From NCBI GenBank assembly GCA_022496805.1, contig CM040106.1, positions 3,100,001 through 3,164,000 of the forward strand: a DNA stretch of 64,000 nt, given 5' to 3'. The notes beneath the pieces are model-generated. The model saw nothing but the letters and a program-made list of their open reading frames with translations. It was not told the origin of the DNA and ran no database searches. The position numbers and the translations under genes are program-made. Position 1 is the stretch's first letter; the number at the start of each line of letters is the position of its first letter. This DNA is from Pohlia nutans. Taxonomy: Eukaryota; Streptophyta; Bryopsida; Bryales; Mniaceae. This document shows, in pieces, positions 7,319 through 29,876 of this stretch.

Positions 7319-8450
7319 TAATTAAATAAAAATTTGTGGGTCTAAGTGTAAGAGTTCAGCTATAGTTTTAGATCTCCATTTGTGTTCTAGCTTGGTAATG
7401 TGAAGTTGGAAGTTTTCTTCTGTGCTATTTAGGTGTACACTAGCGGCTGTTTTTATAGGAAATAATGTTCATGTTGTCGGTGATCTAATGTAGTTTTGGT
7501 GTTTGATTCTCGGAATGCTTCGGCTCCACCGGCTTTAGCGAGTATATGTTGTATTAGTCGCTTATATATTATTCCTAATCGTCCTGTGTCATTAAGTGCG
7601 TTTCTAAGTTGTTCACCAACACATCTGAGGTAGGCAAGTTTTGATGAGAAGGCTTCTAACCCAAATAAATCATGAGGGAGTTGGGTTATTATGTTTGTTG
7701 TACTTTTAGGGAGTCCGCATGTTGTTTTTTGGGTTGCAATAATTTTTTGTCTAGTTTTTTTATAGTTGGTTGAGAGTATGGAACTGCAAAGAAGCTGTAG
7801 GCTATGCTTGCTCTGATTACTGTGTCGACCATGTTGATTTTTTGTTTGATAGTGACAGGACATTTTGATAGTTGTTTAATTGGTCTGTTACTTTAGCTGT
7901 GGTGATATGTGTTTGGCGCTTCCATTTTAGTCATAGGACCAATTGTATGCCTAAGTAGACATAAGGTTCATTTTGATGTAGTATTGGTAGCGTTTGGTTC
8001 TTGTAGCTGATTTTCTGGGTTGGCATGTGGTTTTTGAATTTGTTTCGTGACAACACATTTTGTGACTCCTAGGTCCATGCCTGCCCATTCACAGAATTTG
8101 TCGATTTTGTTTTGTTGTATTTGTAGTGATTTTGTATTATTTGATATAGCTGCTAGGTCATCTGTGTATCTTGCAGAGCTAATTTTTATTTTTGATGTAC
8201 CAAATGTGTATCCATTTTCCCCTCTTTGTAACCATCTTAAGAGTAGTTCTAAGAATATAAAGAAAAGATATGGGCTAAGTGTGTCTCCTTGTATAGTTCC
8301 TCTTTGGATTGGTATTGGTTATATTTTGCCAAAGTGTTCTCCGGTGAATATAGTGTTTGAGTATGAGTAAATATTTCCAACTAATATTATTGCGTCTTTA
8401 GGGAAGCTGAGGTCTTTCATTGTAGCTAGTAATCTTGCATGATCTAATGA
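7319..8450 (-). pseudogene. LINE A ORF2: reverse transcriptase motifs B, C and thumb
   Basis: On the minus strand the catalytic box C reads RYTDDLA (codons at 8157-8168), so both catalytic Asp residues are kept. Upstream, the GTIQGDT-like box B and FLRWLQRG equivalents are visible at 8220-8310. Downstream, 7863-7453 matches the thumb region of copy B (KKTRQKIIATQKTTCGLPKS; QLPHDLFGLEAFSSKLAYLR). The frame changes at several points, so the coding sequence is broken. The left boundary of box A falls at the duplication GATCTAATGA, where copy B entered. Confidence 0.82.
8441..8450. repeat. Left target-site duplication of LINE copy B
   Basis: GATCTAATGA here recurs at 24385-24394. Joining the flanks restores the reverse-transcriptase motif A of copy A (YIDFKNAFDSLDH), confirming this as the insertion point. 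Confidence 0.9.
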
Positions 8451-9007
8451 GATTGGGCTCAAAAGTGTTCAAAAGTGCAACATTATAGAACGATGAGGGC
8501 GAAAACTTAGACACGTTGAGGGCGGCGGAAGCATGCACTGAAGGCAGGTGGGTGTGATCTAGATTGACGCAAGCTGGGCTGCGACTCGATTGTGTTGAAG
8601 GAATGCTGAGCGTGGCCGTGGATGTTGGCACTAGATTGAGATCTGCAGCAGTAAGGAGCTAGACGCACACGCAAAAGCAACATACGACCATTGTGGAGCG
8701 CTCATCGGAGGAGCGTGCTAGTGTGCAGGCTGGGCTGCCAGGTAGCAGGTTTGATTTGCAAGCTTACACTCCCACTATCAGATCTGATACTTGCTAGTGT
8801 TGAAAAATAGAGTTACATATTCCTATGCTAGTACGCAGGCTGGGCTGCATTGTATTAGACTCAGGTTCCTTACAGTTTTATCTTCTCCCTCGCATTAGTA
8901 AGGCATAAAGTTGGTATGCAAATCAGATCCGATAGTGGCTTGCGCGACAGCATATCGCTAACCCACTTCCCCACAGAGTAGTTGGATCTGTGGACACTCA
9001 GTAGCCG
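8451..9007 (+). promoter_or_regulatory. LINE B 5' leader (probable internal promoter region)
   Basis: The first 557 bases after the duplication have no long open frame and are more GC-rich than ORF2. GCAGGCTGGGCTGC-like words recur three times (about 8575, 8720, 8835), and the palindromic ATCAGATCTGAT (about 8778) has a near match at about 8924 (ATCAGATCCGAT). LINE 5' ends normally carry an internal promoter, so that role is inferred from position only. Confidence 0.5.
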
Positions 9008-10862
9008 GTGATACTTCACTCTTCTTGCCATCCCTGCTCCCTTATGCGCTTCAGATTTGGATTAGGCCCGCTCAGTTCATTCATAACTCACCTACCAGAA
9101 AGCACAGCCGAAACCGTCAACTCCGACAAACAAGCATTCGAGAACTTCAAGAAGCAGATCGGCGCCTGTCGCAGGCTCCTCCTGCTAAACCTTCAGCTAA
9201 TTTCTCTCAACTCTACCATCATTCTGTCTTTATTGTTTTCAATCTCTCACATTTTCTGCATTCCTTTTGATCAAACTTGCATCGGTCCCATAGTGCGCAT
9301 CAACACTTATCTAGCAGAGACCATAGATATGCAAGCTTTACCTTGCGCAGATAGCAGCAACACTTGCACGCACCAAGACCACCGGCACGAGACAGCCAAA
9401 ATCAAACACCGGCATCAGATCTCGCACCACAGCGAGACACTCACGAGATCTTCAACTGCCCGTCACCCTTCGGAAGAAGTTACGTTCACAACGCATCACA
9501 TTGATAGCAGTGGTGACATAACCGTCCTGCCAGCCCAAGATTGGAGTGGGAATCAGCACAACAAAACTGATCCCAACATCACAAATGCAAGAATCAACAA
9601 CAAACCTCAAAACTACAGGATAGCCCCAACTAGCAGAAGCAACGACCTACAAGCCTCGCATCGTACTAGCCATCTCCAAAACTACAGGAAGTCGCATACA
9701 ACAGCCAATCTTGGTAGCAATCAGAACCGGGAGCAAGCCACCAAACAACGCCGACACAATAGCTCTGCCCCAACGTTCTGCCCAGGTAAAGCTAATCCCT
9801 GCAACCCTAACCCTTATCAATTTTGCACCAGCTCCAAGACTGGCGATTCTCCCGACAGCAATAACGAAGCCAATCCCAACAGCGACATTCTGACAGGTAA
9901 GTGCCCTAACCAACCCCCTTGCAATTACAATTTCAATTATTCCCTGATTTTAGACTACATCAGTAGAATTTCTACGTACTTTGATCAAAACGCGTGGCGG
10001 GTGCATAGTGTGGGGGATACAGGTACCAAACGGCATTCCATTGACTTGAAACAAGCAAACATAGAACCACGCCAGTCGGTATGGATTAGGCCCTCAGACG
10101 ACAACCAAAAGATGGACATTGATGGCGAAACCCTGACTGGCAGCCTTAAGAGGCTGTTAGCAGCCAGAGACGCCAAGAACGCTACTCTCAAGAAGACCAA
10201 GAATAACGCCAATTTAGCGGACAAATCCAGCACACAAGACCAAGACGACAACAACTCTATGGAAATCAAAGACAATAGTGGTAGCAATCAAGTTGCAAAG
10301 ACGAACCAGACCCAAGACGAAGCTGCCGCCGCAAGTCAGAAAGAACGTAGCCGTAAGTCCATTGCCAGCGGCTTCGGGGAGCAGAGATACAAGAACAGCG
10401 AACCAAGGCCGCGGCAACACAACCAACTCCAGGACAGAAGAAAACCGAGACGTCAACAGCCGCGGAAGATCACAGCTGAGAGAAGCCAGACCGGCGAGTA
10501 CAGCAGAAAAAACCAAAGGCGACGTAAACGAAGGCAAGCAAAGCACAGGCGGAGAAAGCAGGGGCGGAGAAAACAGAGGAAGCAAAGAGAAGAACCACGA
10601 ACTAAGAAGACGAGAGCCTTCACAAGACGCAAAAACGAGAATCGGCGCAGCTCTCGAGGAGAGCCGCAACAAAGACGCAGACAGCTCGGAGACGCAAAGC
10701 AGCTCCAATGAGGAAACCAGCGGCGACCAACAACGACCAAGCAACACTCGAGGCCACAACAACGTAGGCGAGGAAACGAAGAAGACAGCAGACGGAACAG
10801 CGAAGGACGTACAACAACAAAAAGGAGCGTGGACGGAATGGCAGCGGCAAGACAACATGTAG
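9008..10862 (+). pseudogene. LINE B ORF1, N-terminal basic low-complexity region
   Basis: A 567-codon frame opens at 9008, and a second frame overlaps its end (10278-10862). The chain is rich in Asn, Gln, Ser and Lys/Arg, with long Arg/Lys-Gln runs from about 10380 on, as expected for a nucleic-acid-binding ORF1 tail. The point SLKRLLAARDA (about 10140) matches SLKRILEKK in copy A, which fixes the frame there. Beyond it, copy A resembles the overlapping frame (ending near 10862) more in its composition, so a frame change near 10300 is likely. No known domain is recognised. The ATG at 9008 is the first long-frame start but is not confirmed by copy A, whose matching part is displaced. Confidence 0.55.
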
Positions 10863-10933
10863 GAAGACAGTGACGACCTTAACTTTGTAACTCCTGGTCA
10901 GAAACCCCCCTCTCTCAAACTGATAGTGTAAAC

Positions 10934-12506
10934 GTGAATTTTGGACCACGAAAGCCAAATTTGTGGCTTGGCTTTAAGCATATAGAACTCCTTGGGCGTG
11001 AGAATAATGAAGACGCAATCTTTATGGATGAATCGGTAGAGGACATGGAAACTAGAGGTGTGACCCGTAAGGAAGCCGAGGAAACTATTGATGCAATTGT
11101 GGCGTTCCCACAAACGCCACAAATTCTCTACCCTATGGAAAAGGATGATGGGATTGTAGGGCAACACTACAATCTCACCCAAATTCCCTTTGACATACCG
11201 GTAGATCCCACTACCGGCTTAGCCTTGGACTTCCACGTGGAAATCCACTTCAAAGTCCATATAGAAACCCTGATTCTCCATGATGAAGCCAAAGCTAAAA
11301 TCACTAGCCGGTTAGAGGAAATGAACATTCTCCTTGGTCAAGGCATTATTGACCCCATGGCGGTATTATGTTATAGTGCCAAAAGGGGAGGGCAATGTGG
11401 GGTTTGGAATGGTGAAGTTAAATTACACCTCCAAAACCCGGGAGAGGATGGCATTAAGTTACTCAAAGGGCTCTGCCCCTTTATTCTAGAGTATGATATT
11501 CTAGATGAACCCTGTAACACACCTTGCCCAAAAAAAATTTGGGCAAAGTGTGCAAGAGCTTCTATAATGTTGCTAGAAACGATAGTCTCTCGGTTAAAAT
11601 AAAAAGTGACAATTTGATTGACACTACCGCTAGCTCCCTTTTCCTTGACATCTTGAGGAATAGCTTCCTCAAGAGAAATGATTTTGAAATCACGGATGTC
11701 TAAAAGAAAATTTATGAGTCTTACGCATTCGTAGTAGCTCCTACCCCTAATCAAGCGGACAAGATTAGGATGCATCATGTCGCGACTGACCACGAGGTTA
11801 TTAAACCTCAAAAAATGGTGTACAATACAGCACGCATCTCACCCGAGGAAAAGGCAAAGAAAGATGCCTTGTCCCTTACTCTCTCTTACCTTCCCATTTT
11901 GATGACGGTGGTTGACATCATGGAAGCGATCTTTAGAGTCATGGAGAATAAGAATGTAGCCTCGATATGGTTCCATAGGGAAGTGGGGACTATGCACAAT
12001 GGGAGTGCCAACGTGCAATGCACGAATCACATCGCGTATAGGTCTTTTGTGAACAAGAAATTTGTCATTGGAGGCAACTATGTAGAGTTTTCTCCGCAGA
12101 TAAGAAGCCTAGACGATTTGCTCCCACCCACGAAAGAAATGGTGGAAAAATGGGGTTTTAACGACATCAACAAAGCCTTGATCAACACCGTGACTACACT
12201 TGTAACGGCAACCCCATCCATCACCAAAGAAGATATGAAGAAAATCTTGAAAGATTATGTGAAAACAATTTTAGAAGAGAACAACAAAGCCATGAGGGAG
12301 GAAAACAAGAAGATGAAATTGATTTGAAGTTGTCCATGGAGAAGAAGATGAATGAAGAGAGAATCTTCAACGACGCCAAGCATGATGAACTACAAGCAAA
12401 GATTGATGCCGTTCATATGAATATTATGCTAACAATTAAAGGCCTTGGAGACATCAAGCGTAGTACTTCCCGTCTCACCATAGAGTATTCAAAAAATGTA
12501 GATTGA
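10934..12506 (+). pseudogene. LINE B ORF1, conserved domain and coiled-coil C-terminus
   Basis: Three frames in series (10934-11602, 11770-12327, 12324-12506). The first reads GPRKPNLWLGFKHIELLG, DDGIVGQHYNLTQIPFDIPV, GGQCGVWNGEVKLHLQNPG and LLKGLCPFILEYD; copy A has all of these with only moderate change. The second holds KDALSLTLSYLPILMTVVD and NKNVASIWFHREV. The last 100 residues are charged heptad-like helix (EDMKKILKDYVKTILEENNK) ending in a second helix. Alternating hydrophobic strands around VWNGEVKLHL and AFVVAPTPNQADKI suggest RRM-like folds, but no family is assigned. Frame breaks occur at about 11600-11770 and at 12324. Confidence 0.6.
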
Positions 12507-13218
12507 AAAAAGACCAAGAGTAGAATACACAGTATACTTTATACTTTATAGTACTAGAAACTCTCTACTTTATACTATATAATATACAATATTTATACAA
12601 TATTTATACGGCACACTACTTAGTATTGTACGATATAGAAATACCAAATACATACCATTTTGGTATACATATACTGTAATACTATACACCACAAATAAAA
12701 AGGTATATACTAATACCACAAAATACATATACGGTTATACAATACTTTTGTACTAATACCAATACAAATACAAATACCAATACAAATTCCAATACAAAAA
12801 CCAATATTTATACCAATACTAACACGAATACCAATACAAATACCAATACAAATTCCACGACATTCACCTCTACAAATACCACTTCAAATATCAATTTAAA
12901 TACCAATAAAAATAACTATATAAATACCAACACCAATACCAATACTAATACCAAAATAAATACCAACAAAAAAACCAAAACAAATAACAATGTCAAACTA
13001 AATTTATACAAAAACAAAAAACATACAAAATACATAATACACAAAACAAAAAGAAATATCAAAAATCCCAAAAACAAATACCCCAACAAAAACCGAAGAA
13101 CCAACAAACAAAATAAATGGACTCGGCCTAGCGGCTTCGTCCAAAAAAACTCCAACAACAATGGACTCGGCCTACCGGCCTCGTCTAAAATAGACAAAGA
13201 AAAAAGAAAAAACTAAAA
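12507..13218 (+). other. LINE B inter-ORF spacer, G-poor A/C-rich
   Basis: About 700 bases between ORF1 and ORF2, made of variants of AATACCAATACAAATACC and nearly devoid of G on the sense strand, so little RNA structure is expected. At its end the phrase ATGGACTCGGCCTA(G/C)CGGC occurs twice (13118 and 13162), giving a stop-containing and a 10-codon mini-frame just ahead of the ORF2 ATG. Copy A has an equivalent spacer (27461-28410). It may serve reinitiation or internal initiation of ORF2; this is inference. Confidence 0.6.
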
Positions 13219-13434
13219 ATGGCCCAACAATCTCCCCTGAAAAGAAACTTTTTACAACAAATATTAATATTATGCGGAGATATCGAAACCAACCCCAGGC
13301 CCATGCCCGACCTACTAAAAACACACCCACCTACTCATAGAAGAAGATCCAAAACATACTTTATACCAAGCACGATTAAATTACAATCCGAATACCAACA
13401 TTTAGCAAAACAATTTTCACCTATCTTAAATATG
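13219..13434 (+). pseudogene. LINE B ORF2 N-terminus with degenerate 2A-like motif
   Basis: The frame starts ATG GCC at 13219. Within 30 residues it has FLQQILILCGDIETNPRP (2A core at 13279-13302). Ribosome-skipping 2A peptides end D-(V/I)-E-x-N-P-G-P; here the Gly codon GGG has become AGG (13297-13299), so skipping should fail in this copy. Copy A keeps NPGP. The hydrophobic leucine-rich stretch before GDI is also typical of 2A-like sequences in APE-type LINEs. The frame is cut at 13434 by a CACTA-type insertion and resumes at about 15560. Confidence 0.75.
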
Positions 13435-15556
13435 CACTGCAGGGAAATTTGTGGCTTAATTGACAGAGTTTTGACAAAGATCTATCAACTGTCTTCTCAA
13501 TTAGGGCACCTTGATTCGGTCACTTTGTTGACACATTTTGGTCATCTTGGTCGTCATTTTGGATATAGATACACGTCAGCAGCATTGTCCTCGATTCTCT
13601 TCGCCACGGTGGATTTACTTTGCCACGTCAGCAGTTTCCTTTTAAGGTAGTTTGGTTCATGCATGGTGAAAAGGGTTATAGTGAATTTCGTGGAAATTTC
13701 ATGGTTTGTGTGAAAGTGAAATTAATCCCTAACTGGAATTTGTGGAACTCCGCTATTTTAGTAAAAGTTACTTCTTTACTCCACAGTAGTTTCGTGGCAT
13801 CTTAGTTTGGAACCACTCTCCTGGTTCCAAGTGTTGAATTCAGCAGCCTCTCACATTAGAAGGGAATTGAGGCCAGCAAAGGGCCGTTTCAGGGCTGTTC
13901 TCCAGATATAGGGAACTCAGAAAAAAATATATTATAAAAAAAAAAAAAAAAAAAAGTTTAAAAAAAAAAAAAATCTTTTTATAGTATTCTGTGACGTTTT
14001 GCTAACGTCACAGTGTTCCGACCACGTCAGCAGCCCACATGGCAGCAGCCTTTTTTTATCGCATGGAGCTCCCAAGCTTGGGAGCTTGAAGAGAACTCAC
14101 GGCCTTTTGGAGGCCTGAATTCCCTTCTAATGATTTTATTATGGGCCAAATGAGATTGTCATGCTGCTGTTGACGTTACGATCACCGCGTCGTTTGTAGA
14201 TTACTCGTCCCTGTGCAGACAAAGTGCATTGATTGGAGCAACGCATGTCGGGTATATCGGTAACTAACTTATTCTGAAATGCACAACCTAGCGTGAAATT
14301 ATGACGTTACGATTGAACCTAAGCTGCGTCTGTGGAGCTTGGAAAGGAAAAAAGGCTGAAGAGAAAAAACACCGACCACTCAATGAGAGCATGTTCCTTT
14401 GGGCAGAACAACCGCCTTCCAATCTATGATAAATTAAAAACCCTCTGCACTCATAAGCTTCATAGTCTTTCATTTGCTCAACATTATTTCTCCTCCTTCT
14501 CAAAGCCTCCGCTGCCACAACCAACCCCAAACGCAATGCACACCTGTACCTCCAACCTCGATCTAGAAAACCCTAACCAATACTCCTCGACCAAAATACT
14601 CAAAGAAGAAACCTAGAAACCAGTCACGCGGGAAATGGGAAAAGTAGATGTTTCGTGGATATGGCAGAAAACAAGAGAGAACAACGAAGAGCGGTATCAG
14701 AGCAAAGGACGACAACACTGGAGGTAAAAAAATAAGACTACACGGTCAGACACAACGACATCGCAAAGAATCCCGAAAAAAAGGACGCAGCGTACGAGGT
14801 TGGCAAGCAACAAAGGCATGAAATACCTCGTTGGAAAGCTGGCGCTGTGGGCGAGACGACGGCAATGACAACGAAAGGGGTGAGAGCACGCGCGCGTTGA
14901 GAATCAATGCGGGGAATGCAACGATACTTGCGCAAGCTCCAAACTCCGAAGAGCTTACGAGGATAAGACAGCGACCTGTATGCAGAGCGGTGGCCTTGCG
15001 AGGGATAAGACAACAACAGGGCGGTGGGAGCATAATCGGTGATTAGTAGGGAAATTAGTGACTGGTAAAATTAGTGTGTATTTTTTAAGTGTTATTAATT
15101 ATGGGCATGCATAGAATACTGTAAGTGGAGATAGGGATGCTCATCTTGTCCTAGTCACATTTTGTCCCCACTTTGGGTATTTGTAGGCGTTCCCTTGTAC
15201 ATGATTGCATTATTCTTATTGACCCATCCTTCAAATTAATCATTGTAGTACAACTTTGACAATTGGCTGGTTTTGAAATGGGTTAAAAGATATGCTAAGT
15301 GTAGCAAAAAGTGGCAATTTACTACAAAAAAGGAGTTCCCCGTATGTAGCTTTGAATCAAGCATTGAAAAACTTCTACTCATTTCCAAGCAATTCGGTAA
15401 ATCCACGTTGTAAAGTAACGCGAAGTTGACAAAAAGTTGACAAAATAAAGAGAATTTTCGGACATGACAAGAATTTACATGAAAAATGTTCAAGTTATCA
15501 TCTTGGACATTTCTCTGTCAACTATTTGTCATTCAGACACAGATTTCCTTGTAGTG
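13435..15556. mobile_element. Non-autonomous CACTA-type element in LINE B
   Basis: Left end CACTGCAGGGAAATTTGTG; the right end reversed reads CACTACAAGGAAATCTGTG, so the termini match over about 19 bp with four differences. Copy A lacks this segment: its sequence runs straight across (TCTAAATTTAACACATCC). The 3-bp flanks are ATG (13432-13434) and ATA (15557-15559), a one-mismatch duplication of the size CACTA elements make. No transposase frame is visible in the 2.1 kb, and a MITE sits inside at 13854-14132. Confidence 0.85.
13854..14132. mobile_element. MITE nested in the CACTA-type element
   Basis: Terminal inverted repeats of about 21 bp, CATTAGAAGGGAATTGAGGC at the left and the reverse complement of CATTAGAAGGGAATTCAGGC at the right, each followed inward by (A)AAGGCCGT. 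The middle is poly-A/AT-rich. No clear target duplication. The same terminal block occurs near 58672-58707 and 62124-62160. Confidence 0.75.
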
Positions 15557-15559
15557 ATA

Positions 15560-16067
15560 ACACATCCAAATCATACGGAAGCTAGTAACGACTACCGACA
15601 CATATCAAACTACATTTACCAAAACCAACATCATCCATCACCAAGAATATTATACGCACTCATCGTTACAATAAGTCCATCGAAAGAAACATATGATCAA
15701 ATCTTAATACAAATCCCCAACCCGGATTGAACAACTTTACTGCTAGAAAAAATGTCCTTACTACAAAACCCACCTGAAAGACACATCTTAACTACACATC
15801 CATACACGGAATTTACAACCAATAATCAAAATCTAATAAACCCACCAAATACAATTCACAAAGAAATCTATACTTTTATTCATCAACATAATGGTCCAAT
15901 AACCCTTCAAACCATGACTGAGAAATTCTCATTTCTCCCTATCAATTTGTTAGAAGAAACCTTAAAAATACAAAAACCATTACATGAATACACTCACCCC
16001 CCCCCCCCCCCCACTTCCAAACATACCCACAATACAACCACAAGAAATACATACAACATACCACAAT
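15560..16067 (+). pseudogene. LINE B ORF2 linker between 2A-like motif and endonuclease
   Basis: Resumes the ORF2 chain after the CACTA insertion: DYRHISNYIYQNQHHPSPRI and SKETYDQILIQIPNP, which match copy A at about 27190-27050. A stop at about 15728 and a later frame (15752-16126) follow. A run of 14-15 C (about 15997-16012), where copy A has only four C, shifts the frame before the endonuclease. No domain recognised in this roughly 150-residue linker. Confidence 0.6.
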
Positions 16068-17327
16068 ACAAGATTTATCACATGAAATGCCTTATCACTA
16101 AATACGGCCCTTCCAAACTTACATGAGTTAATCAACACACCAGATGAACCCGCTATCATCAAAATACAAGAAACTAAATTAACCGCTACAAAATCCACCA
16201 AATATTTACAAAACCTATTTCCAAAATACAAATTAATTTTTAATAACACACATGCACTAACAAGATGCATGCAACAACGAATGCAATACATACCCGCAAG
16301 AGGAGGTCTCCTCACACTAATACACCAAAAATACGCATATCCCGGCAACATCACTAAAATCCCAACACCCAAGGAAATATCACCTTATCTACAAAGAATA
16401 AAAATAGACAACAAACCACTACAAACCTGGTTAATTATTCACATGTATATGCCATCACATGTAGAAGACACACAATATATACCAATGATCCAACAAAACA
16501 TACCACAACAAATTAATGTCCACCCAAATACCACACACATATTGTATGGTGACTTTAAGAGAGATATAGTGCTTATTGGACGACAAAATGATACCGACAC
16601 AACTCCACCGCAAACGGAAGATATAGAATGGAGAACATTTACAAATAATCTCCAATTAGAATACATACCAAAAGATTGCCTATACTCTAGACAAGGCGGA
16701 CAAAACTACAACCAAACCAGCCTAATAGATGGATACTACATTAAAACACCAAATAATACTTTATACGCATCAACTACAGACAATAACCACAACCTTAACT
16801 CTGACCACTCACCAGTAACATTATACATACCACCTAACATCTTATTAGCAAGACCCATACCAATAACAAATAAAACAACGAGAATTCTAAACCCCATACC
16901 ACAAGAAAATATTGAAAAATTCAAAATAGAATATTTTGAAAAAAATGCCCTACAAATAGATGAACTCATGACAATACTATCAAATGATCAACTAACAGAC
17001 GTACAATGGCAAACATCCTCTTCGAAAATAGATCACTTGATACAAAAAATATCTAACAAAATTCAAGAAACTTGTAGTGCACCACCGTTCTCGACACTAA
17101 CAAATCGCACCTCTCAACAAGGAGGCTTCTTACAAAGAAAACTTCAAAAAGCATGGAAAAAACACCTATCTACCTACCATCTAATTAGAAAAACAATTTA
17201 CATAACAAAAAATACACAAAATTGGCAAACACATCCAATAATCGAAGAATTAAAAACCCATACAAAGGAACCATCCCACCAATCCCAACTCAAGAGCAAA
17301 ATCAACAAGATTGGATACAATCAATAG
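16068..17327 (+). pseudogene. LINE B ORF2: APE-type endonuclease domain
   Basis: An exonuclease/endonuclease/phosphatase-type nuclease that nicks target DNA to prime reverse transcription. Motifs in order: TRFIT-stop-NALSLN (copy A has TWNASSLN, so TGG became TGA at 16083-16085), KIQETKLTATKS (the catalytic Glu), ARGGLLTLIHQ, ILYGDFKRD (equivalent of GDFN), SLIDGYY, and NSDHSPVTLY (SDH motif with the catalytic His). Length and order agree with the APE domain of LINEs. The remaining 100 residues lead to a basic linker (KLQKAWKKHL). Only one nonsense codon separates this from an open frame, apart from the upstream frame shift. Confidence 0.8.
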
Positions 17328-17779
17328 TAGAATTAGCTAAGACAGCTAAGATACAAGCCCGTAAAATCACCACAAAATATACCCAAAGTTGTATAAAAAA
17401 AGAAATTCTAAAATACAGACAACTATACGACAAAAGTCCAAAGAAAATAAACAAAAATGTTTTCAAAAATCAAGAAACGCCACCATTAGACTGCATTTTG
17501 GATAGGAACAACAACATACTAACCAGCCTAGAAGACATAGCAAATGAAATACTCATACAACAATCAATTAGTAATAGACCTATAGTACCAACATGTTACT
17601 ACCAACCTGAACATCCAGCACAATGTACTTGCGGAGTTAGACAATACCCATGGCATGACCTTGATGGCTTTGTAATAGAAAAAAGAAGAAATCCACAAAT
17701 ACCACTGTATAAACATTTTGATCAAGAAATATATGAAATTTGTCTCAAACACCTATCTAACAACAAAACATTAGGATAA
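17328..17779 (+). pseudogene. LINE B ORF2: linker and reverse transcriptase N-terminus
   Basis: Frame 17222-17779 continues the chain: SCIKKEILKYRQLYDKSPKK, LDCILDRNNNILTSLEDIAN, then CYYQPEHPAQCTCGVRQYPW and SNNKTLG followed by a stop where copy A reads NKILGQDKIPNSILKN. The pattern 'a loop of Asp-rich sequence, then helix, then G.D.IPN..LK' is the usual entry to LINE reverse transcriptase (motif 0-1). The stop comes from a small deletion. Confidence 0.65.
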
Positions 17780-17883
17780 AAAATAATCCCCAATTCAATA
17801 CTAAAAAACATGCCCGAAAGCTTTCATAAATCTCTCTTTTTATTTTTTTCTCACTGCTACAAACAAAAACAAATCCCAGCCTG

Positions 17884-18771
17884 ATGGAAAATAAGTTAAC
17901 CATACTATTGTACAAAAAAGGAAATCCCGCACAACTGCCAAACCACAGACCAATAGCACTTGCAAATACAATATACAAATTCTTCACCAGTGCACTAACA
18001 TACATACTATCAGAATACGGTGAAAAATACCAAATTCTACACGATAGTCAAGAAGGATTCAGAGCAGAAAGAAGTACAGCAAGACAATTACAACTCCTCA
18101 TAGTAGCACTAGAGGACTCAAAATTTACAAATCAAGACATATACCTGCTATATATAGACTTCAAAAATACATTTGGCTCATTAGATCACGCAAGACTCTT
18201 AGCGTTAATGAAAGACCTTGGATACCCAGAAGATGCAATAATGCTATTTGGAAACATCTACTCCTATTCAAACACCATATTCTTTGGAAAACACTTTGGC
18301 AAAACAAAACCAATACCGATTCAAAGGGGAACCATACAAGGAGACACGCTTAGCCCATATCTCTTCATAATTTTTCTTCAACCACTCTTGAGATGGCTAC
18401 AAAGAGGGGAAAATGGATACACGTTTGGTACATCAAAAATAAAATTTAACTCTGTAGCATACGCGGACAATCTAGCAGCTATATCAAACAATACAAAATC
18501 ACTACAAATACAACTAAACAAAATTGACAAATTCTGTGAATGGATAGGCATGGACTTGGGAGTCACAAAATGCGCCGTCACCGGTTGCCCAAATAAATCC
18601 AAAATGCAACCAAACAAATTTAAAACCCACATCACAAACCAAAAAATCAATTACAGAGACCAAACACTACCAATACTCCATCAAAATGAACCTTATGTAT
18701 ACTTGGGTATACAATTAGTTCCATCACTAAAATGGAAACTCCAAACACATATATTACCACAACTAAAATAA
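17884..18771 (+). pseudogene. LINE B ORF2: reverse transcriptase core
   Basis: RNA-dependent DNA polymerase core. Motifs: NHRPIALANTIYK (motif 1), EGFRAERST (motif 3), YLLYIDFKNTFGSLDH (motif A, first catalytic Asp), RGTIQGDTLSPYLF (motif B), VAYADNLA (motif C, codons 18460-18471) and GVTKCAVTG (motif D). Motif C should be (Y/F)xDD; the second Asp is Asn here (GAC-AAT), which should abolish polymerase activity in B. Copy A keeps YTDD. The RT block is followed by the thumb in a different frame. Confidence 0.88.
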
Positions 18772-19277
18772 TAGACCAATGTAACCAACTATCAAAATGC
18801 CCTGCCACCATCAAACAAAGAATCAGTATGGTGGACACAATAATCAGAGCAGGCATAGCCTATAGCTTCTTTGCAGTCCCGTACTCACTACCAACCATTA
18901 AAAAACTTGACAAGAAAATTATTGCAGTCCAAAAAACAATATGCGGACTACCTAAAAGCAACGCAAACATAATAACTCAACTTCCTCATGATTTATTTGG
19001 ACTAGAAGCCTTCTCTCTAAAAAATGCTTACCTTAGATGCATTGGGGAACAACTTCAAAATGCACTTAACGACAAAGAGAGACTAGGAATAATATATGAA
19101 GGACTTATACAATACATACTTGCAAAAGCCGGCAGTGCCGAAGACATCCCAAGAATTAAACGTCAAGATTGCATTACGTCATCTACAACACGAACATTAT
19201 TCCTTTTGAAAACAGCAGGTGGTATACACCTTAAAAGCACAGAAGAAAACTTCCAACTTCTCTATGACCGAACTTGA
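18772..19277 (+). pseudogene. LINE B ORF2: reverse transcriptase thumb
   Basis: Frame 18732-19277: MVDTIIRAGIAYSFFAVPYS, KKLDKKIIAVQKTICGLPKS and QLPHDLFGLEAFSLKNAYLR. This matches copy A at 7863-7453 closely. The helical run after RT motif E in APE-type LINEs commonly has 'IxxxxxxxxYGxxxxP...LxxxxxxxxRxxxGLP.S', which fits. The frame differs from the preceding RT core, so a one- or two-base change lies near 18760. Confidence 0.7.
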
Positions 19278-20978
19278 ACGAGAATAGCAATCTACAGTCA
19301 TAAACAAACTACCACACTTAGAACCAAAACTCTCCATTAAATTATTATAAAAATTAATGGCACACAAAATTTACAATATAAATCAAATCATCCTTCCCAA
19401 CAGCACAAAACTAATGTCACCACAAGAATTTAAAATATACTATCAAAATCCAATTAAACTAGACAAAAGTGCACTAAACATAGCAAAACAACTCTTTTGT
19501 GAACCAAAATGTACCCTAGATTGCCCAAATTCATATCAAATACACTTACTACCCCGTACATTGAAAGAAAAATATAAAATATATAACCACAGAATAATAC
19601 CAAGAACACCAATAAACCCCGTACAATTCCTTCAACCTCCACAACCACAACAACCAACCCCACCATAAAACATAAAAAACAATCCTATAAGATTCCCCAT
19701 TCGCACAATATTAAACCACAAAACAATTACAACAGAAGACAAATATAAAATATTTAAAAATACAACACCTACCTATGTCAATGGATAGACTCAAACCACA
19801 TAACATATAATAAATGGTTAGAACAACGCGAACTATTTCCACTAAATCTATCAACAATAATACACCATAATATAAACCTACTTACAAAATACTACACAAA
19901 TTATAAAAAAAAATACTATCAAAATATCATAAATACACAACTTACACCCGAACAAAATAGAGACACAAGATACATCCCACCCCCAACAATAATCCCCTAC
20001 ATTAAAACATCCACAATTGAATGTAACCCAGAAAGAGACATAGACACAAACAAATGCACCATTCAAACACAATATGATAAAACCCACATATATAACGACA
20101 TCGATAAATATATCACCACCATTTCGACTACAAGAATAAAATGGTTATGGCAACAATACAACAACAATAAATACAACATCCACAGACTAATACCGGCTAT
20201 ACAAACATTTGAAACGGAAGTAGTCTGGTTATATCAAAGATACGAACACAAAAAACACAAAAAGAATACAATAAAAACACCACACCATACCATTCCATCC
20301 AACATTCTAGACACACTAATAACAACATTTAATATAACACACTCATACTTTTCCTCACCAATTACATGTTCCATGAAATCTACCCAAATCTACTCAACAT
20401 TTATTAGAGACAAGATTTTTGGCTCACTAGGGACAGCCTTTTAATACAAATGGAAAGGTATCGGATATGCACACCCTTATGACGCCGAAACAACACAACA
20501 AGCAATACATTGGGCAAGACTAGCAGCAAAACAAGACCCTGAAACTGTCACCATTTTAGTAATCTCAGACACCAACTGGTACCAAAATCTATCACCATAC
20601 AACGGACCTTTCCGGATACGCACGCCATTATACATTTTGCCGCGGACACCATTACATATGACAAACCAACAATATCACTAGAACCCAACAAAACCCAAAA
20701 TGAACCACTTGCAATGCGCATATGGTGTATTCTCCATCAAAACAATAGCATTGGCACAATAAACCAAATAAACACCATAAACACAACAATGGAAAATCTA
20801 CAAATTTCGCAATACCATACACAAACACACCACCCACACCGCCAAACACAAAAGTTAACAAAAGCACAAAATGGAATAAACTAATATACTCAATATACAA
20901 TAACCCACATAACATTGACATGTTACTCCTACCCAACTTTGAAATAAACACTACCCTAAAATTCCTACCAAAATAAAG
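19278..20978 (+). pseudogene. LINE B ORF2: linker with methyltransferase-like segment
   Basis: Corresponds to 5867-7318 of copy A. Open at 19357-19668 (FKIYYQNPIKLDKSALNIAK; CTLDCPNSYQIHLLPRTLKE), then broken. About 20395-20650 reads FIRDKIFGSLGTAF-stop-YKWKGIGYAHPYDA, AIHWARLAAKQDPETVTILV, SDTNWYQNLSPYNGPF, and after a frame change towards 20700 the same downstream elements as A. The spacing between the FG motif, the AHPYD position and the hydrophobic strand ILV resembles adenine-N6 methyltransferase folds of the PCIF1 type, where NPPF would be expected at AHPY. The function is therefore only a suggestion. Confidence 0.42.
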
Positions 20979-21700
20979 CTACTACACAGATGGTTCCTTT
21001 TTACTGCCAAAAGAAGGAGATGATGGCCATTGGAAAAAAGAAAAAGCAGGATATGGAATATACAACCCATCTAAACCAGATGTACAAATATCAAGAAGAC
21101 TGCCTGGACTACAAACATGCTTCAGAGTAGAACTAATGGCCATACATGAAACACTTTCACTGATTTCCACTAAATACATAAACGAACCAACACATATTTT
21201 AATTGATTGTCTCAATTGTATACACGTTCTAAACACACAACTAAAACACCCAACCCAACAAAATAACCACGCCGATAAAACCATATTAGAAGCAATGGTA
21301 AAAATGCTAAAAAAGCAAACACAACCCACCACAATATATAAAGTAAAAGCACACGCTAGAATTAATGGAAATGAACACGCAGATCAACTCGCAAAAGAAG
21401 GTACCATGAAAAGAAGTTATCAATTTGCAGTAAATCCACACGAATTTGCATATACCACACCTTATTACTTCCAAAAAGACACATGGCCCGGTCGCATCAA
21501 ACGACCATACAAAGGTTCAGTTAGATGTTTGGAAGAATATATAAAAAAATATGATCGTGAAAATAATCTAGAAATATTGGCAGAAGACTTTCCCAACATT
21601 AACAAATGGACAACAAACTCCATCATAGATAACAAAATGTTTAATGACTTTTGGAATAATCTAGAAATAATAGACCCACAAAAAACAAGCATACTAAAAT
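20979..21700 (+). pseudogene. LINE B ORF2: RNase H domain
   Basis: Removes RNA from the RNA-DNA hybrid. Motifs: SYYTDGSF (first Asp; a TAA stop at 20973-20975 lies just before it, where A has TAC), VELMAIHETL (Glu), LIDCLNCIHVL (third Asp) and VKAHARINGNEHADQLAKEG (His, last Asp). All catalytic positions are present. After this comes a linker (NINKWTTNSIIDNKMFNDFW) leading to LKFRTGQYMGNA before the zinc motif. A start Met at 21136 is only the first ATG of the residual frame, not a true start. Confidence 0.85.
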
Positions 21701-22446
21701 TTAGAACCGGTCAATACATGGGCAATGCCAGAAAACAATTAATTTTCGCCATACAAAGATTCCCCTCAAAAACATGTCTTACATGTAACTCACAAGATGC
21801 AGATACATGGCTACATGTACTTTTACTATGCAAACAACACCATATACACGCACTAAGAATCAAAAGACACAACAAAGCGGTATGGGAATTAAGAAAATTA
21901 ATACTATCCTTAAATAAATCAAGATGCTACACTCTCACGAATGCGGGCACATTCAACAATAATCCACAAGAAAACACAGTCCCTCCATGGTTATTACCAT
22001 GTACTTGTAGTCAACAAAGATGTCAATGTAATGCCAGATTCAAACCAGATATATTATGCATTAAATGCCTCCCATACCAAAGTCCACCTCCTCTAAACCC
22101 CGATGATAATCTAACCATACAATTTATAGAATTCACATACACAAACGACAGATTTTCACCAGAAACAATTGGCAGGATAATTTTAAAATATCAACCTCTA
22201 GTTAATAACATCATACAGCAAGGTTGGAAAGTAGATCCTATCATGGTCATTTCAGCTGGAGCTAGAGGAACTACGCACGTCCCCTCAATGAAACAACTAG
22301 AAACAAAATTCAACATTTGCGAAACCTCCATAAAACACACATTCAAAGCAATAAATACCATTGCCATACAGTATGCCGGATCTATCCTTTTACATAAAAG
22401 ACGTATAGAGAATAATCAAACAATACCATCAGACATAGTACATTAA
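21701..22446 (+). pseudogene. LINE B ORF2 C-terminus: CCHC zinc motif and restriction-like nuclease
   Basis: Zinc motif CLTCNSQDADTWLHVLLLC (C-x2-C-x10-H-x4-C, about 21775-21830), then RIKRHNKAVWEL (RHN motif), two Cys pairs (CTCSQQRCQC), and ARFKPDILCIK (KPD), followed by FIEFTYTNDR (acidic residue on a strand), LKYQPLVNNIIQQGW (Lys) and ISAGARGTTH. This is the order C-C-H-C, RHN, (K/R)PD, D/E, K of the RLE nuclease in early-branching LINEs and Dualen/RandI. Here the PD pair is intact, unlike copy A. The frame ends with TAA at 22444. The two other Cys pairs between RHN and KPD are an unusual addition. Confidence 0.75.
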
Positions 22447-22926
22447 AAGAGGGAGGTTAGTGGTGAAAACCACTACTAGCCACTCTTTTCAAACAACTAG
22501 CTCAACTTGTCTCAGGGGATAGGAAGGGCCGGTTGGTTGGTACAACTTTGCGATGACAACTCACTAGCAGCACCAAACCATGTGTACCACACCACTGCTC
22601 AACGAGCCCTATTGGTTTCGAACCCGGACCACATAAATGTGATACAACGCCCTTCCCCAACCAACCAAAGAACTCATGACTTGGCGATAAAACTTAACAC
22701 TAGGCATACCTTTATACAAACCAGCACTCATCCAAACAGTACTTCGCTTTTTGCCTCTGTTATCGTTACTGTTACTTTGTTTTGGTTACTATAGTGTCCA
22801 TCCTCGAAAGAGGAGAGTAGTATTGTTCTAATGTCCCTTTGTCATGTGGGCAACGGGTCATTGACATTACAAACGGACACTTTATTCACGCCGGCCCTTT
22901 CTTTGGGTCGGTGTTTCTATCTATCT
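22447..22926 (+). other. LINE B 3' UTR (first copy)
   Basis: About 480 bases from the ORF2 stop to a CTATCTATCT tail at about 22926. It matches the 3' end of copy A on the minus strand (about 3736-4240) and the shorter copy at 24195-24384. Conserved words include GTTACTATAGTGTCCAT, AGAGTAGTATTGT and ACGGACACTTTATTCA. A tRNA-like promoter is present on the opposite strand within it. Confidence 0.75.
22550..22700 (-). promoter_or_regulatory. Antisense tRNA-like (Pol III A/B box) sequence in the LINE 3' UTR
   Basis: On the minus strand, TTTGGTTGGTTGGGGAAGGG (A-box-like, near 22670) is followed about 35 bases later by GGGTTCGAAACC (B box, near 22620). The spacing and B box fit tRNA-derived promoters as found in SINE heads. 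The same arrangement lies in copy A (4000-4060, read on plus). It may be a captured SINE or a chance match; no cloverleaf can be folded convincingly by eye. Confidence 0.35.
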
Positions 22927-24194
22927 ATCTTCTACAAAAAGTATACATATTTAAAATTTGTTCATATTGCATTGTATTCACATTTATGATTATTCTAGTT
23001 TGAATTGAAAACTTGAAATAAAACAAACTATTTTTGAGTTATATACACTATGAGAAGAGAAAAATGAAATTAGAAGGTAACATGCAATTCTCTATTTCTG
23101 CACTTGGCCAAGTGCAATCATTTTGGGACCTAATTCTGCTGAAAAAAAGAAAATTTATCAAAAATAAAGACAAAGAAGACATTGATTTCTTTTTTTGTTA
23201 AAACTTATAGTATATTGCAATAAAAAACTAATATTTCAAATTTTTCAAAACCAAAATTTGAACTTCATTTATTTTTAAAATTGTAAGCTTAACTATTTAA
23301 AAACTATTACAAATTATCAATAGATAAACCCCTAAACGTACTAACCCTTTGAATACGAGTAGATGCTAGCCTTAAAAATAAATAATAACATGGCTCAGAT
23401 GTACATGAGGTGTACATGAGAGGACCATTGGAAGCATAAAATCTACCCAACATATTTGACATACTTGTAGTTGAAGGCCTCTTCAATAATATGAACAACT
23501 CCCTATTACAAGAGATTTATTGCAATTAGTAGATAATTTAATAGGACTACAAAGGTGGAGCGGATGAAAGTCATCCGAGATTGTATGAGAAAGTTGCAAT
23601 GATTTGAATCTGTTTGTTATCTAGTTTTTGGACGATGGGACGTTTAGAGATTAAAACACTATAATAACCCTGCCAAGGTGTATAGAAGAAGACATGAATT
23701 TGTTTCCTTATTTCCTTTTTATAATTTCTTTTTTGTGTATTAAAAGCCCATAAGGGTGTGTAGTTCCTTCCTACATCTTTTAAAAGAACATTGAAATGCC
23801 ATGTATCTTTAGTCCTTCCGCCACACCATATTTTTATTTTTATTTTTTTATTATTATTTTTTAAGGTATATGTACTCCGTCACCCTAGTGTGTACCCTCA
23901 GCCCATCCGCCACGCAAAAAAAAAAAAATGTTTTTTGGGACGTGGCGAATGGGCTAAGGGTTCGGGGCAATGCATCCTCTATCCTACATCCCTCAAGAGA
24001 ACATCAATATGTTCTTCCGTACCCTCTCACGGTCGCCTCGAGAATATATTAGGCAGCCTTGGGAGGATAGAAGAATATATAAATGTTCTCTTGAAGAGTC
24101 ACTTAATGTGAGGACAAAAGAGGATCCGCACGTGCCAACCCTAGGTCACGGAAAACGCGGAATTTTTTAATTTAATCTCTTTTTTTAACCACCA
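22927..24194. other. Extra 1.27 kb between two LINE 3' UTR copies
   Basis: Not part of the LINE as judged by copy A. No gene recognised. It holds an imperfect hairpin near 23898-23957 (GCCCATCCGCCACG ... CGTGGCGAATGGGC). It is bounded on the left by the first 3' UTR's tail and on the right by a second, partial 3' UTR. The position inside the outer duplication suggests it travelled with B (3' transduction). Confidence 0.45.
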
Positions 24195-24384
24195 ATACTT
24201 CGCTTCTCTCCTCTTTTACCGTTATTGTTACTTTGTTTTGGTTACTATAGTGTCCATCCTCGAAAGAGGAGAGTAGTATTGTTCCAATGTTCCTTTGTCC
24301 GGTGGACATCGGGTCATTGGCATTACGAACGGACACTTTATTCATGCCGGCCCTTTCTTTGGGTCGGTGTTTCTATCTATCTAT
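24195..24384 (+). other. LINE 3' UTR (second, partial copy) with tail
   Basis: About 190 bases matching the last part of the 22447-22926 3' UTR (for example GAGAGTAGTATTGTTCCAAT, ACGGACACTTTATTCATGCC) and ending in TTTCTATCTATCTAT, directly followed by the right duplication GATCTAATGA. This copy, not the first, is the true 3' end of the insertion. Confidence 0.8.
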
Positions 24385-24394
24385 GATCTAATGA
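24385..24394. repeat. Right target-site duplication of LINE copy B
   Basis: GATCTAATGA, identical to 8441-8450, immediately after the CTATCTATCTAT tail. LINE A coding sequence resumes at 24395. Confidence 0.9.
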
Positions 24395-25400
24395 ATCAAA
24401 TGCGTTTTTGAAATCTATGTAGAGTAGATATATGTCTTGATTTGTAAATTTTGTGTCTTCTGATGCTGCAATAAGGAGTTGGAGTTGTCTCGTTGTACTT
24501 CTTTCTGCTCTGAATCCTTCTTGGCTGTCGTGTAATATTTGGTATTTTTCACTGTATGTTGATAGAATATATGTTAGTGTATGGGTAAAAAAAATTTATA
24601 TTGTGTTTGCAAGTGCAATTGGTCTGTGGTTTGGCAGTTGTGATGGATCTCCTTTCTTGTAAAGTAGTATGGTTAGGCTTATTTTCCATGAGGCTGGGAT
24701 TTGCTTTTGTTTGTAGCAGTGTATGAAGGATAGGAATAGTAGTTTTGAAAGTTTTCGGGCATATTCTTTAGTATTGAGTTGGGGATTTTATCTTGACCTA
24801 GAATTTTGTTGTTAGATGAGTGCTTGAGACACATGTCATATGTTTCTTCATCTAAGTGTTTATAAAATGGGATTTGTGGGTTATTTCTTTTTCCTATCAC
24901 AAATCCATTAAGGTCGTGCCATGGATATTGTCTAACTTTGCAAATCCATTGTGGTGGGTGTTCAGGTTGGTACACTAATTAGGTATCATAATGTTAGATA
25001 CACTAATTTACATAAACATGTTGTAAGTTTTTACTGTTGACCAATTTTTTTACCCTCTATATTGGTCAAGATGGGGATCTTTCAATAGTATTGGAATTAA
25101 TGTCTTTGGTAATTTTTTTTGTCGAGTTAAAATCTGTAATATTTTCAAATCTTATAATTATCTAACACTAATCTACCTATTTAGTGTAGTAGCATGTTGG
25201 TACTGTAGGCCTGTTGTTAATTGATTGTTGTATGTGGATTTCTTTTGCTATGCCTTCTGGACTGGATAGTATATTATTGTTTCTATCCATAATGTAGTCT
25301 ACTAGAGGCGTGTCTTGGTTTTGAAGACTTTTTTGTTTACTTTTTTAGGACTTTTTCATATAGTTGTCTGTATTTTGATATTGTCTTTTTAATACGGTTT
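24395..25400 (-). pseudogene. LINE A ORF2: reverse transcriptase N-terminal half
   Basis: From 24395 upward on the minus strand: LLYIDFKNAF then the break at FDSLDH (motif A, joined to 8450), EGFRAERSTTRQLQLL (motif 3), ALANTI and ITTAKPQTNC-type sequence near motif 1, and NKILGQDKIPNSILKNMPE. Frame 24975-24679 is open. It matches copy B 17500-18160. The MITE at 24973-25186 splits the stretch before CYYQPEHP. Confidence 0.75.
24973..25186. mobile_element. MITE with TA duplication in LINE A
   Basis: Begins CACTAATTAGGTATCATAAT and ends with the reverse complement of CACTAAATAGGTAGATTAGT; TA flanks it (24971-24972, 25187-25188). Copy B is uninterrupted at this point (GGTTGGTAGTAACATG), which gives the exact empty site and shows the duplication is TA. 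TA duplication points to Tc1/mariner-type mobilisation in spite of the CACTA start. Confidence 0.75.
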
Positions 25401-26860
25401 TGAGTATATTTTGTGGTGATTTTACGTGCTTGTATTTTTGCTGTCTTTGCTATTTCTACTAGTCATTGGATCCATTCTTGTTGATTTTGTTCTTGAGTTG
25501 GAAATGGTGAAATGTTGACATTAGTATGAGTTTTTAATTCTTCAATTATTGGATGTGTTTGCCAGTTTTGTATGTTTTTTGTTATGTATATTGCTTTTCT
25601 AATTAGGTGATAGGTAGATAGGTGATTTTTCCATGTTTTTTGTAGTTTTCTTGGTAGGAAGCCTCCTTGTTGGGAAGTGCGATTTGTTAATGTTGGAAGT
25701 GGTAGTGCACTGCAAGTTTCTTGTATTCTATCCGATATTTTTGTATTATGTGATCTAGCTTTGTACAGGTTGTTTGCTACTGGTTGTTTGTTAGTTGGTC
25801 ATTTAATAGTGTTGTGGTGAATTCATTTATTTGCAGTGCATTTTCTTCACAAAATTCTATTTTGAATTTTTCTATATTTTCTTGTAGTAAAGGGTTTAGA
25901 ATTCTCATTGTTTTATTTGTTATTGGTATGGGTCTTGCTAGTAAGGTGTTTGGTGGTATGTATAGTTACTGGCCAGTGGTCTGAATCAAGGTTGTAATCA
26001 TTATCTGTAGTTGATGTGTATAAAGTATTATCTGGTGTTTTGATGTAGTATCTATCAATTAGGCTAGTTTGGTTATAGTTTTGTCGCCCTTGTCTGATGA
26101 ATGAGCAATTTGTTGGGATGTATTCTAATTGGAGATTATTTGTAAATGTTTTCCATTCTATGTCTTTTGTTTGTGGTGGGGTTGTGTCGGTTTCTTATTT
26201 TCGTCTTATAAGTGCTATATCTCTATTAAAGTCACCGCATAATGTGATATTTGGGTGTGCATTGATTTGTTGTATTATGTTTGATGGATCATTGGTATAT
26301 ATTGTATGTCATCTACATGTGACGGCATGTACATGTTGATAATTAACTAAGTTTGTAGTGGTTTATTATGAATTTTTATTATTTGTAGAGAGATTGATAT
26401 TTGTTTAGGAGTTGGGATTTAAATAGTTGATATTGCCGGGGTATGCATATTTTTGGTGTATTAGTGTGAGGAGACGTCCTCTTGCGGGTATGTATGGCAT
26501 TCTCTGTTGCATGCATCTGGTTAAGGCATGTGTGTTATTAAAAATTAATTTGTATGTTGGGAATAGGTTTTGTAAATATTTGGTGGATTTTGTAGCGGTT
26601 AATTTAGTTTCTTGTATTGTGATGATAGTCAGTTGATCAAGTGTGTTGGAAATTAGTTCATGTAAGTTTGGAAGGGCCGTATTTAGTGATGAGGCATTCC
26701 ATGTAATAAATCTCGTATTATGGTTTGTTGTATATATTTCTTGTGGTTGTATTGTGGGTATGTTTGGAAGTACTGGGGATGAGTATATTCATGTAATGGT
26801 TCATGTATTTTTAAGATTTCTTCTAACAAGTTGATAGAAAAGAATGGGAATTCATCAATC
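25400..26860 (-). pseudogene. LINE A ORF2: APE-type endonuclease and linker
   Basis: Read from 26720 downward: TRFITWNASSLN (the Trp and Asn motif kept, unlike B), TIITIQETKLTATKS (catalytic Glu), ARGRLLTLIHQKYAY, then ILGDFN-type sequence near 26230, and SDHWPV-type sequence near 25975. Several frame changes lie between (for example around 26340-26420 and 25985). Copy B supplies the homologous order. In combination with the C-terminal RLE this element encoded two nuclease types. Confidence 0.72.
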
Positions 26861-27124
26861 ATGGTTAAGAGAGTTATTGACCCATTGTGTTGATGAATAA
26901 AAGTATAAATTTCTTTGTGAATGGTGTTCGGTGGATTTATTAAGTTTTATTACTATTTGTGAATTGAGTGTACGGATGTGTAATTGAGATATGTCTTTCA
27001 GGTGGGTTTTGTAGTATGGACATTTTTTCTAGTAGTAATGTTGTCCAATTAGGGTTTGGAATTACGAGTTGGTCACATGTTTCTTTTGATGGACTGATTG
27101 TGATGATGAGTGCATATAGTATTC

Positions 27125-29860: not shown

Positions 29861-29876
29861 ACCAAAAATTAGGCTT

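What the first reader, a model, noticed from the sequence alone, without database searches (positions are those of the whole stretch)
8451..24384. A LINE family with two endonucleases (APE and RLE), RNase H and an ORF1: a Dualen/RandI-like element in a plant-like genome
Direct reading shows, in one ORF2, an APE nuclease (IQETK, SDHSPV), a reverse transcriptase, RNase H (TDGS, ELMAI, NGNEHAD), a CCHC motif, RHN, KPD and IEF..KY. Most LINEs have only one nuclease type. Dualen/RandI of Chlamydomonas is the known dual case. Here the copies come with plant-type Stowaway and CACTA elements, are about 12.5 kb long, and carry a large unfamiliar ORF1.
Basis: partly seen in the sequence, partly recalled or inferred. 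Interest (0 to 1): 0.9.

Follow-up and report, generated by a model that had tools for sequence, protein, structure and literature searches.

The report
Dual-nuclease LINE with methyltransferase-like domain
A large jumping gene of the LINE type carries two different DNA-cutting domains and also a domain that looks like a borrowed enzyme for marking messenger-RNA caps, but with its active site changed, which suggests it has been turned to a new use.

Summary
Copy A (8451-24383) is a non-LTR retrotransposon inserted, with an 11-bp target-site duplication, into an older copy whose halves are B and C. The order is 2A-like peptide, APE, reverse transcriptase, RNase H, CCHC, RLE. The same genome holds unbroken relatives: one 2577-residue frame matches Pfam APE, RVT_1, PCIF1_WW and RNase_H.

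Between RT and RNase H lies a domain related to PCIF1, the m6Am mRNA-cap methyltransferase (PF12237 in 8 of 8 pieces at E<=1, best 3.9e-13; best fold match human PCIF1, low-confidence model). It is under purifying selection (dN/dS 0.15-0.25), but NPPF aligns to HPHN, in 13 of 13 loci (12 distinct copies). I read it as a pseudo-methyltransferase reused to bind RNA (inference). A chromodomain-like fold before it is tentative.

The layout is Dualen/RandI-like; RT-tree membership was not testable. Only one paper in the library searched holds both 'PCIF1' and 'non-LTR', on another subject. A conserved 2A usually lacks an upstream in-frame AUG (27 of 30 loci).

The parts
8451..24383 (+). Copy A: younger LINE insertion, including nested and 3'-added DNA
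   Evidence: TSD TGATCTAATGA 8440-8450 / 24384-24394; inverted-repeat break points
24384..30541 (-). Copy B: 5' half of the older LINE copy (ORF1, 2A, APE, start of RT); 5' end not fixed
   Evidence: BLAST to A at 69-90% up to 29878; reading frames
3725..8450 (-). Copy C: 3' half of the same older copy (RT to 3' end)
   Evidence: 81.9% identical to 18177-22941 over 4797 columns
10883..12324 (+). ORF1 of copy A, broken; no Pfam match above cut-off
   Evidence: dN/dS 0.09 against B over 285 codons; longer open frames in L015-L018; Pfam
13255..13302 (+). 2A-like peptide of copy A (QQILILCGDIETNPRP; NPGP altered to NPRP)
   Evidence: DIExNPGP in 29 of 30 own-genome loci
27341..27367 (-). 2A-like peptide of copy B (GDIDTNPGP)
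13435..15556 (.). Nested CACTA-type element in copy A (ends CACTGCAGGGAAATTTGTG / CACTACAAGGAAATCTGTG)
   Evidence: absent from B; terminal sequences
16140..16820 (+). APE endonuclease domain, copy A
   Evidence: Exo_endo_phos_2 4.9e-4 and 1.9e-4, below cut-off; dN/dS 0.17; intact relative 1e-6
17830..18768 (+). Reverse transcriptase, copy A
   Evidence: RVT_1 8.6e-26; R2 best in PDB, 5e-21
19690..19905 (+). Chromodomain-like stretch (tentative), placed by similarity to relative P0002
20190..20570 (+). PCIF1-like domain, copy A: part matched by Pfam, read past one stop; the domain is wider
   Evidence: PF12237 6.1e-9 without and 1.6e-11 with the stop read as X; dN/dS 0.21; YAHPY at 20466-20480
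6162..6458 (-). PCIF1-like domain, copy C: part matched by Pfam
   Evidence: PF12237 5.5e-9; YAHSF at 6174-6188
20977..21402 (+). RNase H, copy A
   Evidence: RNase_H 4.3e-14
21775..22443 (+). CCHC knuckle and restriction-like endonuclease, copy A
   Evidence: motifs; Foldseek R2Tg and BspD6I for relative P0008, low-confidence model; dN/dS 0.17
22737..22934 (+). Element 3' end, first occurrence, ending in (CTAT)n
24193..24383 (+). Element 3' end, second occurrence, next to the TSD
   Evidence: 91% identical to 22737-22934

Best explanation
This is a large non-LTR retrotransposon family with both an N-terminal APE and a C-terminal RLE nuclease (sequence and motif evidence). ORF2 carries, between RT and RNase H, a PCIF1-derived methyltransferase-fold domain, possibly preceded by a chromodomain-like fold. 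Most likely mechanism (inferred): ribosomes reach the ORF2 frame from the end of ORF1, perhaps by a -1 frameshift, and a 2A peptide splits the product; ORF2 binds its own RNA, aided by the PCIF1-like domain acting as a non-catalytic RNA-binding module, since its NPPF motif is lost; one nuclease nicks the first strand for target-primed reverse transcription, the other cuts the second strand; RNase H clears the template. Confidence: architecture 0.93; PCIF1 ancestry 0.92; non-catalytic RNA-binding role 0.5; division of labour between the nucleases 0.35; frameshift-2A route 0.35.
Against: No activity is shown. The structure models have low confidence (mean pLDDT 37 and 40), and the Foldseek alignments have rmsd near 20. 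A single-sequence PDB search with the PCIF1-like piece did not find PCIF1, and the whole-protein profile A1 found it only at E 0.85, behind RNase H1. RLE had no sequence-profile match, and its D-to-E spacing is 27 residues in 3 of 3 relatives against 13 in R2Bm (residue numbers in a PMC10499050 passage). Nothing here shows RNA binding. For the frameshift route, I saw no canonical slippery heptamer in the printed overlaps (by eye), and 11 of the 15 overlapping loci are near-identical young copies.
Confidence: 0.75

Rival explanations
1. The PCIF1-like domain is still an active adenosine methyltransferase with an unusual motif (HPHN), marking the element's own RNA cap or the inserted DNA.
For: YFSSPITC and RDKVFGS/RDKIFGS are kept in 13 of 13 loci (12 distinct copies); purifying selection.
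Against: The N, the second P and the F of NPPF are all replaced, identically in 13 of 13 loci. Passages read: disrupting NPPF reduces PCIF1 activity (PMC6318281), and a single F-to-H change could explain the absence of m6Am in Drosophila (PMC9479742).
Confidence: 0.15
2. Only one nuclease works; the other is kept as a DNA-binding or structural part.
For: LINEs are usually of one nuclease type (PMC10499050 passage). The RLE was not matched by any profile. KPDI is KPEI in 1 of 13 loci.
Against: Both domains show low dN/dS (APE 0.17, CCHC-RLE 0.17; CCHC-RLE 0.08-0.10), and both keep their motifs in intact copies.
Confidence: 0.3
3. The PCIF1 match is a chance or generic methyltransferase-fold resemblance, or comes from a contaminated profile.
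For: Model confidence is low; KsgA/DIMT1 adenosine methyltransferases score close behind PCIF1 in VIA; the single-sequence PDB search missed PCIF1. Whether the Pfam seed itself holds retroelement sequences was not checked.
Against: A profile built only from this family finds PCIF1 first in the PDB (E 0.02 and 0.039), with human PCIF1 aligned through the motif region, and Foldseek ranks PCIF1 first with the next hit at E 0.14.
Confidence: 0.05
4. ORF2 translation starts at the Met just after the 2A, and the 2A-like letters are a relic.
For: In 27 of 30 loci there is no in-frame Met before the 2A; the next residue after the 2A is Met in 29 of 30.
Against: GDIETNPGP is unchanged in 8 of 8 printed loci despite silent changes, and the stretch before it shows pooled dN/dS 0.47, less than 1.
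Confidence: 0.3

Closest known systems
Dualen / RandI non-LTR retrotransposons (Chlamydomonas)
   Same: APE and RLE in one element, with RT and RNase H (PMC4640811 and PMC3636483 passages)
   Different: PCIF1-like domain, 2A-like peptide and possible chromodomain here; the cysteine protease recalled for Dualen was not found by Pfam in the pieces scanned; RT relation untested
R2 (RLE-type LINE)
   Same: CCHC followed by PD..E..K with K on a helix; RT closest to R2 among PDB chains
   Different: R2Bm as described in PMC10499050 passages has the RLE and not the APE type; here also RNase H and a separate ORF1
PCIF1/CAPAM m6Am cap methyltransferase
   Same: Sequence and probable fold of the methyltransferase core
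   Different: NPPF motif lost; no WW-domain match in the pieces scanned; inside a LINE protein
Non-LTR retrotransposons with 2A-like sequences (trypanosome, sea urchin; PMC4981915 passages)
   Same: GDIExNPGP near the start of the RT-bearing ORF
   Different: no in-frame AUG before the 2A in 27 of 30 loci; ORF1/ORF2 frame overlap in 15 of 30
Retrotransposons with captured cytosine DNA methyltransferases (PMC5890265, start of abstract seen in a search listing)
   Same: a retrotransposon that took up a methyltransferase
   Different: different enzyme family; here the catalytic motif is lost

Membership tests
Dualen/RandI | APE-type nuclease | tested here: met
   Exo_endo_phos 1e-6 and Exo_endo_phos_2 1.7e-6, both above cut-off, in an intact relative; copy A 4.9e-4, below cut-off
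Dualen/RandI | RLE nuclease in the same ORF | tested here: met
   by motifs and by fold hits of a low-confidence model; not by any sequence profile
Dualen/RandI | RNase H | tested here: met
   4.3e-14
Dualen/RandI | RT groups with Dualen in a tree | not testable with these tools
   no Dualen sequence reachable; protein search failed or was switched off
Dualen/RandI | cysteine protease (recalled from the 2005 description) | tested here: inconclusive
   no cysteine-protease family above cut-off in the pieces scanned; absence of a Pfam hit is weak evidence
PCIF1 (family) | PF12237 / PCIF1 core sequence and fold | tested here: met
   8 of 8 at E<=1; above cut-off in copies A and C and in L009
PCIF1 m6Am methyltransferase (enzyme) | NPPF catalytic motif | tested here: not met
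   aligned residues are HPHN in 13 of 13 loci, 12 distinct copies; AHP in 7 of 7 relatives that reach this site
PCIF1 m6Am methyltransferase (enzyme) | methyl transfer to cap adenosine | not testable with these tools
   needs biochemistry
2A / StopGo peptides | D(V/I)ExNPGP with hydrophobic tract before it | tested here: met
   29 of 30 loci, one NSGP; each window copy departs at one residue
2A / StopGo peptides | ribosome skipping at NPGP | not testable with these tools
   needs a translation assay
Chromodomain | chromodomain fold and sequence | tested here: inconclusive

The most novel reading that the evidence does not exclude
A clade of dual-nuclease LINEs captured a eukaryotic cap-adenosine methyltransferase, lost its catalytic motif while keeping the fold under selection, and uses it as an RNA-handling part of the integration machine; its ORF2 is reached from ORF1 by a -1 frameshift and freed by a working 2A peptide, so that one RNA gives a fixed ratio of ORF1 and ORF2 proteins.
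Probability: 0.3. Interest if true: 0.9.

Novelty: new variant of a known kind. Interest (0 to 1): 0.78.

Why it matters
Dualen-type elements are taken to show that APE replaced RLE in LINE evolution (PMC4640811 passage). A young family with intact copies and both nucleases under selection makes it testable whether the two share the strand cuts. A cap-methyltransferase fold inside a LINE protein, conserved yet without its catalytic motif, points to a new way for a LINE to handle the 5' end of its RNA.

Tried and rejected
Scans for relatives found none in viral contigs, genome contigs or plasmids. The C-terminal profile found no PDB chain by sequence, nor did the APE piece of copy A or the chromo region; the PCIF1-like piece alone did not find PCIF1, and profile A1 found it at 0.85. 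The Pfam scan of the chromo region gave only sub-threshold names. Covarying fold of the 3' end: 0 of 50 pairs had compensatory changes in 3 sequences, so not claimed. TSD of the older copy B/C: no shared word of 9 or more bases in the region searched. Rejected: separate copies B and C (they are halves of one copy). Host PCIF1 could not be looked for: the family search of the own genome did not complete. Notes corrected: my note says 16 of 36 genome matches without stops, recounted it is 18 of 36; my notes give a gap of 67-234 nt between ORF1 and ORF2, which holds only for stop-interrupted copies such as L017 (66 nt after the stop codon) and L018 (230 nt); in 15 of 30 loci the frames overlap. 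In 3 of those 30 loci (L043, L046, L047) my script found no ORF1 end; the other 12 have a later stop in the ORF2 frame. The dN/dS comparison lacked one APE piece; one search replaces it. In one search the two closest pairs (L035, L037) gave 2A dN/dS above 1, from a length difference in the leucine run.

Only one paper held both PCIF1 and non-LTR, on m6A marks of human LINE-1, seen in the listing only. For the nine papers that I opened I saw passages only. Most subscription papers are not held, so a description elsewhere (Kojima and Fujiwara 2005, not held; Repbase entries) cannot be excluded.
Full report
What is there. The region 3725-30541 holds two copies of one LINE family. Copy A lies on the + strand and is inserted into an older copy on the - strand, whose halves are B (24384 upward) and C (up to 8450). 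The break points agree (inverted-repeat arms; BLAST), and the target-site duplication TGATCTAATGA stands at 8440-8450 and 24384-24394. Copy A holds a nested 2122-bp CACTA-type element (13435-15556) and a doubled 3' end (22737-22934 and 24193-24383). From 8451 to the first 3' end, without the nested element, it is 12,362 bp.

Domains in the window copies. Pfam on copy A gives RVT_1 8.6e-26, RNase_H 4.3e-14 and a weak APE match, 4.9e-4, below its cut-off. A PF12237 (PCIF1_WW) match came up between RT and RNase H, 6.1e-9 in one frame piece and 1.6e-11 when the piece is read past one stop; copy C gives 5.5e-9 on its own. The C-terminal block matches no Pfam family (best E 2.7, below cut-off). It holds a CX2CX8HX4C knuckle, RHN, PD, IEFTY and KY.

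Intact copies. The own-genome search answered. The genome has 697.8 Mb in 332 contigs and the window is on contig 22. Of 6648 first-look candidates 36 were scored; all 36 match P0001 (RT end to C-terminus) over nearly its whole length, and 18 of 36 have no stop inside. L009 carries one stop-to-stop frame of 2577 residues. It matches, in order, Exo_endo_phos (456-640, 1e-6), Exo_endo_phos_2 (575-703, 1.7e-6), RVT_1 (1074-1337, 7e-28), PCIF1_WW (1823-1955, 5.5e-11) and RNase_H (2092-2234, 2.7e-13). This rules out a mosaic made by nested insertions. A second search with the 2A-APE region listed 77 matches.

Selection. Between A and B/C, dN/dS is ORF1 0.09 (285 codons, dS 2.36, near saturation), APE 0.17, RT 0.14, thumb 0.11, PCIF1-like 0.21 (95% interval 0.12-0.33), RNase H 0.24, RNase H to CCHC 0.14, CCHC-RLE 0.17. 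Between L009 and four other loci: PCIF1-like 0.15-0.25, chromo-like 0.20-0.30, RNase H 0.11-0.18, CCHC-RLE 0.08-0.10; RT 0.07-0.08 in the 2 of 4 that cover it; APE was not covered well enough in any of the four. So the RLE and the PCIF1-like domain were maintained as proteins in both comparisons, and the APE in the one that covers it.

The altered active site. In the human PCIF1 alignment the NPPF motif lies opposite HPHN. The family reads GYAHPHN in 13 of 13 loci L001-L013; L007 and L013 are the same copy, so 12 distinct copies. It reads AHP in 7 of 7 relatives that reach this site; the window copies read AHPY and AHSF. Passages read: NPPF changes reduce PCIF1 activity (PMC6318281), and an F-to-H change in NPPF could explain the lack of m6Am in Drosophila (PMC9479742). 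Conservation of the fold and of the replacement motif, with selection, suggests a new non-catalytic role. RNA binding is my inference from the known substrate of PCIF1.

The RLE. In P0008 the D (590) stands at the start of a strand (591-595), the E (617) on a strand (612-619) and the K of KIDKY (633-637) on a helix (627-646). A PMC10499050 passage reports Asp996, Asp1009 and a helix-borne Lys1026 in R2Bm. The spacing D to E is longer here (27 residues in 3 of 3).

The 2A and the ORF junction. 29 of 30 own-genome loci read DIExNPGP. The motif GDIETNPGP is unchanged in 8 of 8 printed loci despite silent changes; pooled dN/dS is 0.34 over the 2A (17 codons per pair, 8 pairs), 0.47 before it and 0.17 after it. 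Yet 27 of 30 loci have no in-frame Met between the nearest upstream stop and the 2A. In 15 of 30 loci the ORF2 frame opens 22-25 nt before the stop of ORF1, always in the same relative frame (+2, that is -1). 11 of these 15 are near-identical young copies; L037, L040, L045 and L048 are more diverged. This fits a -1 frameshift giving an ORF1-2A-ORF2 product that the 2A splits, but I saw no canonical slippery heptamer by eye, and a start after the 2A is not excluded.

Comparison. Dualen/RandI is reported to code for both APE and RLE (PMC3636483, PMC4640811, passages). The cysteine protease and mid-position of the RT are recalled from the 2005 description, not read. The features above place this family as Dualen-like in layout; membership by RT tree is untested. 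Among PDB chains the RT is nearer R2 than L1. Among the papers searched, PCIF1 and non-LTR co-occur in one paper only, on another subject.

Noticed in passing
22935-24192: 1258 bp, not A-rich like the LINE, between two copies of the LINE 3' end inside copy A, with the TSD only after the second: looks like a 3' transduction that ended at a second, downstream 3' end.
   Followed up: partly
13435-15556: Nested CACTA-type element in copy A.
   Followed up: partly
24972-25186: About 210-bp insertion in copy B with CACTAAATAGG/CCTAATTAGTG ends and an apparent TA duplication; MITE-like, not read as a canonical Stowaway end.
   Followed up: no
59064-62122: CACTA-type transposase: Transposase_21 1.9e-59 and DUF4218 8.7e-36.
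   Followed up: no
G000:C16:25936359-25980746 (L009 and L019-L022): Four equal-scoring LINE copies spaced 13,505 bp in the same direction: a tandem array or segmental duplication, or an assembly effect.
   Followed up: no
10950-12537 and 28318-29878: ORF1 region of A and B is far more diverged (69% DNA, dS 2.36) than ORF2 (dS about 0.5-0.8), suggesting mosaic elements.
   Followed up: partly
L014 (G000:C9:1373200-1383100): A copy with a long open frame (2773 residues in the stretch) running into the 2A and ORF2 without the usual ORF1 sequence: possibly an internally deleted form.
   Followed up: no
12751-12991: 12-bp tandem array (TACCAATACAAA), 19.6 copies, just before ORF2 in copy A.
   Followed up: no
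P0002-P0005, P0007: Cys-rich stretch after LFC, between RT thumb and the chromo-like region, in 5 of 8 relatives; P0001 keeps part of it.
   Followed up: no
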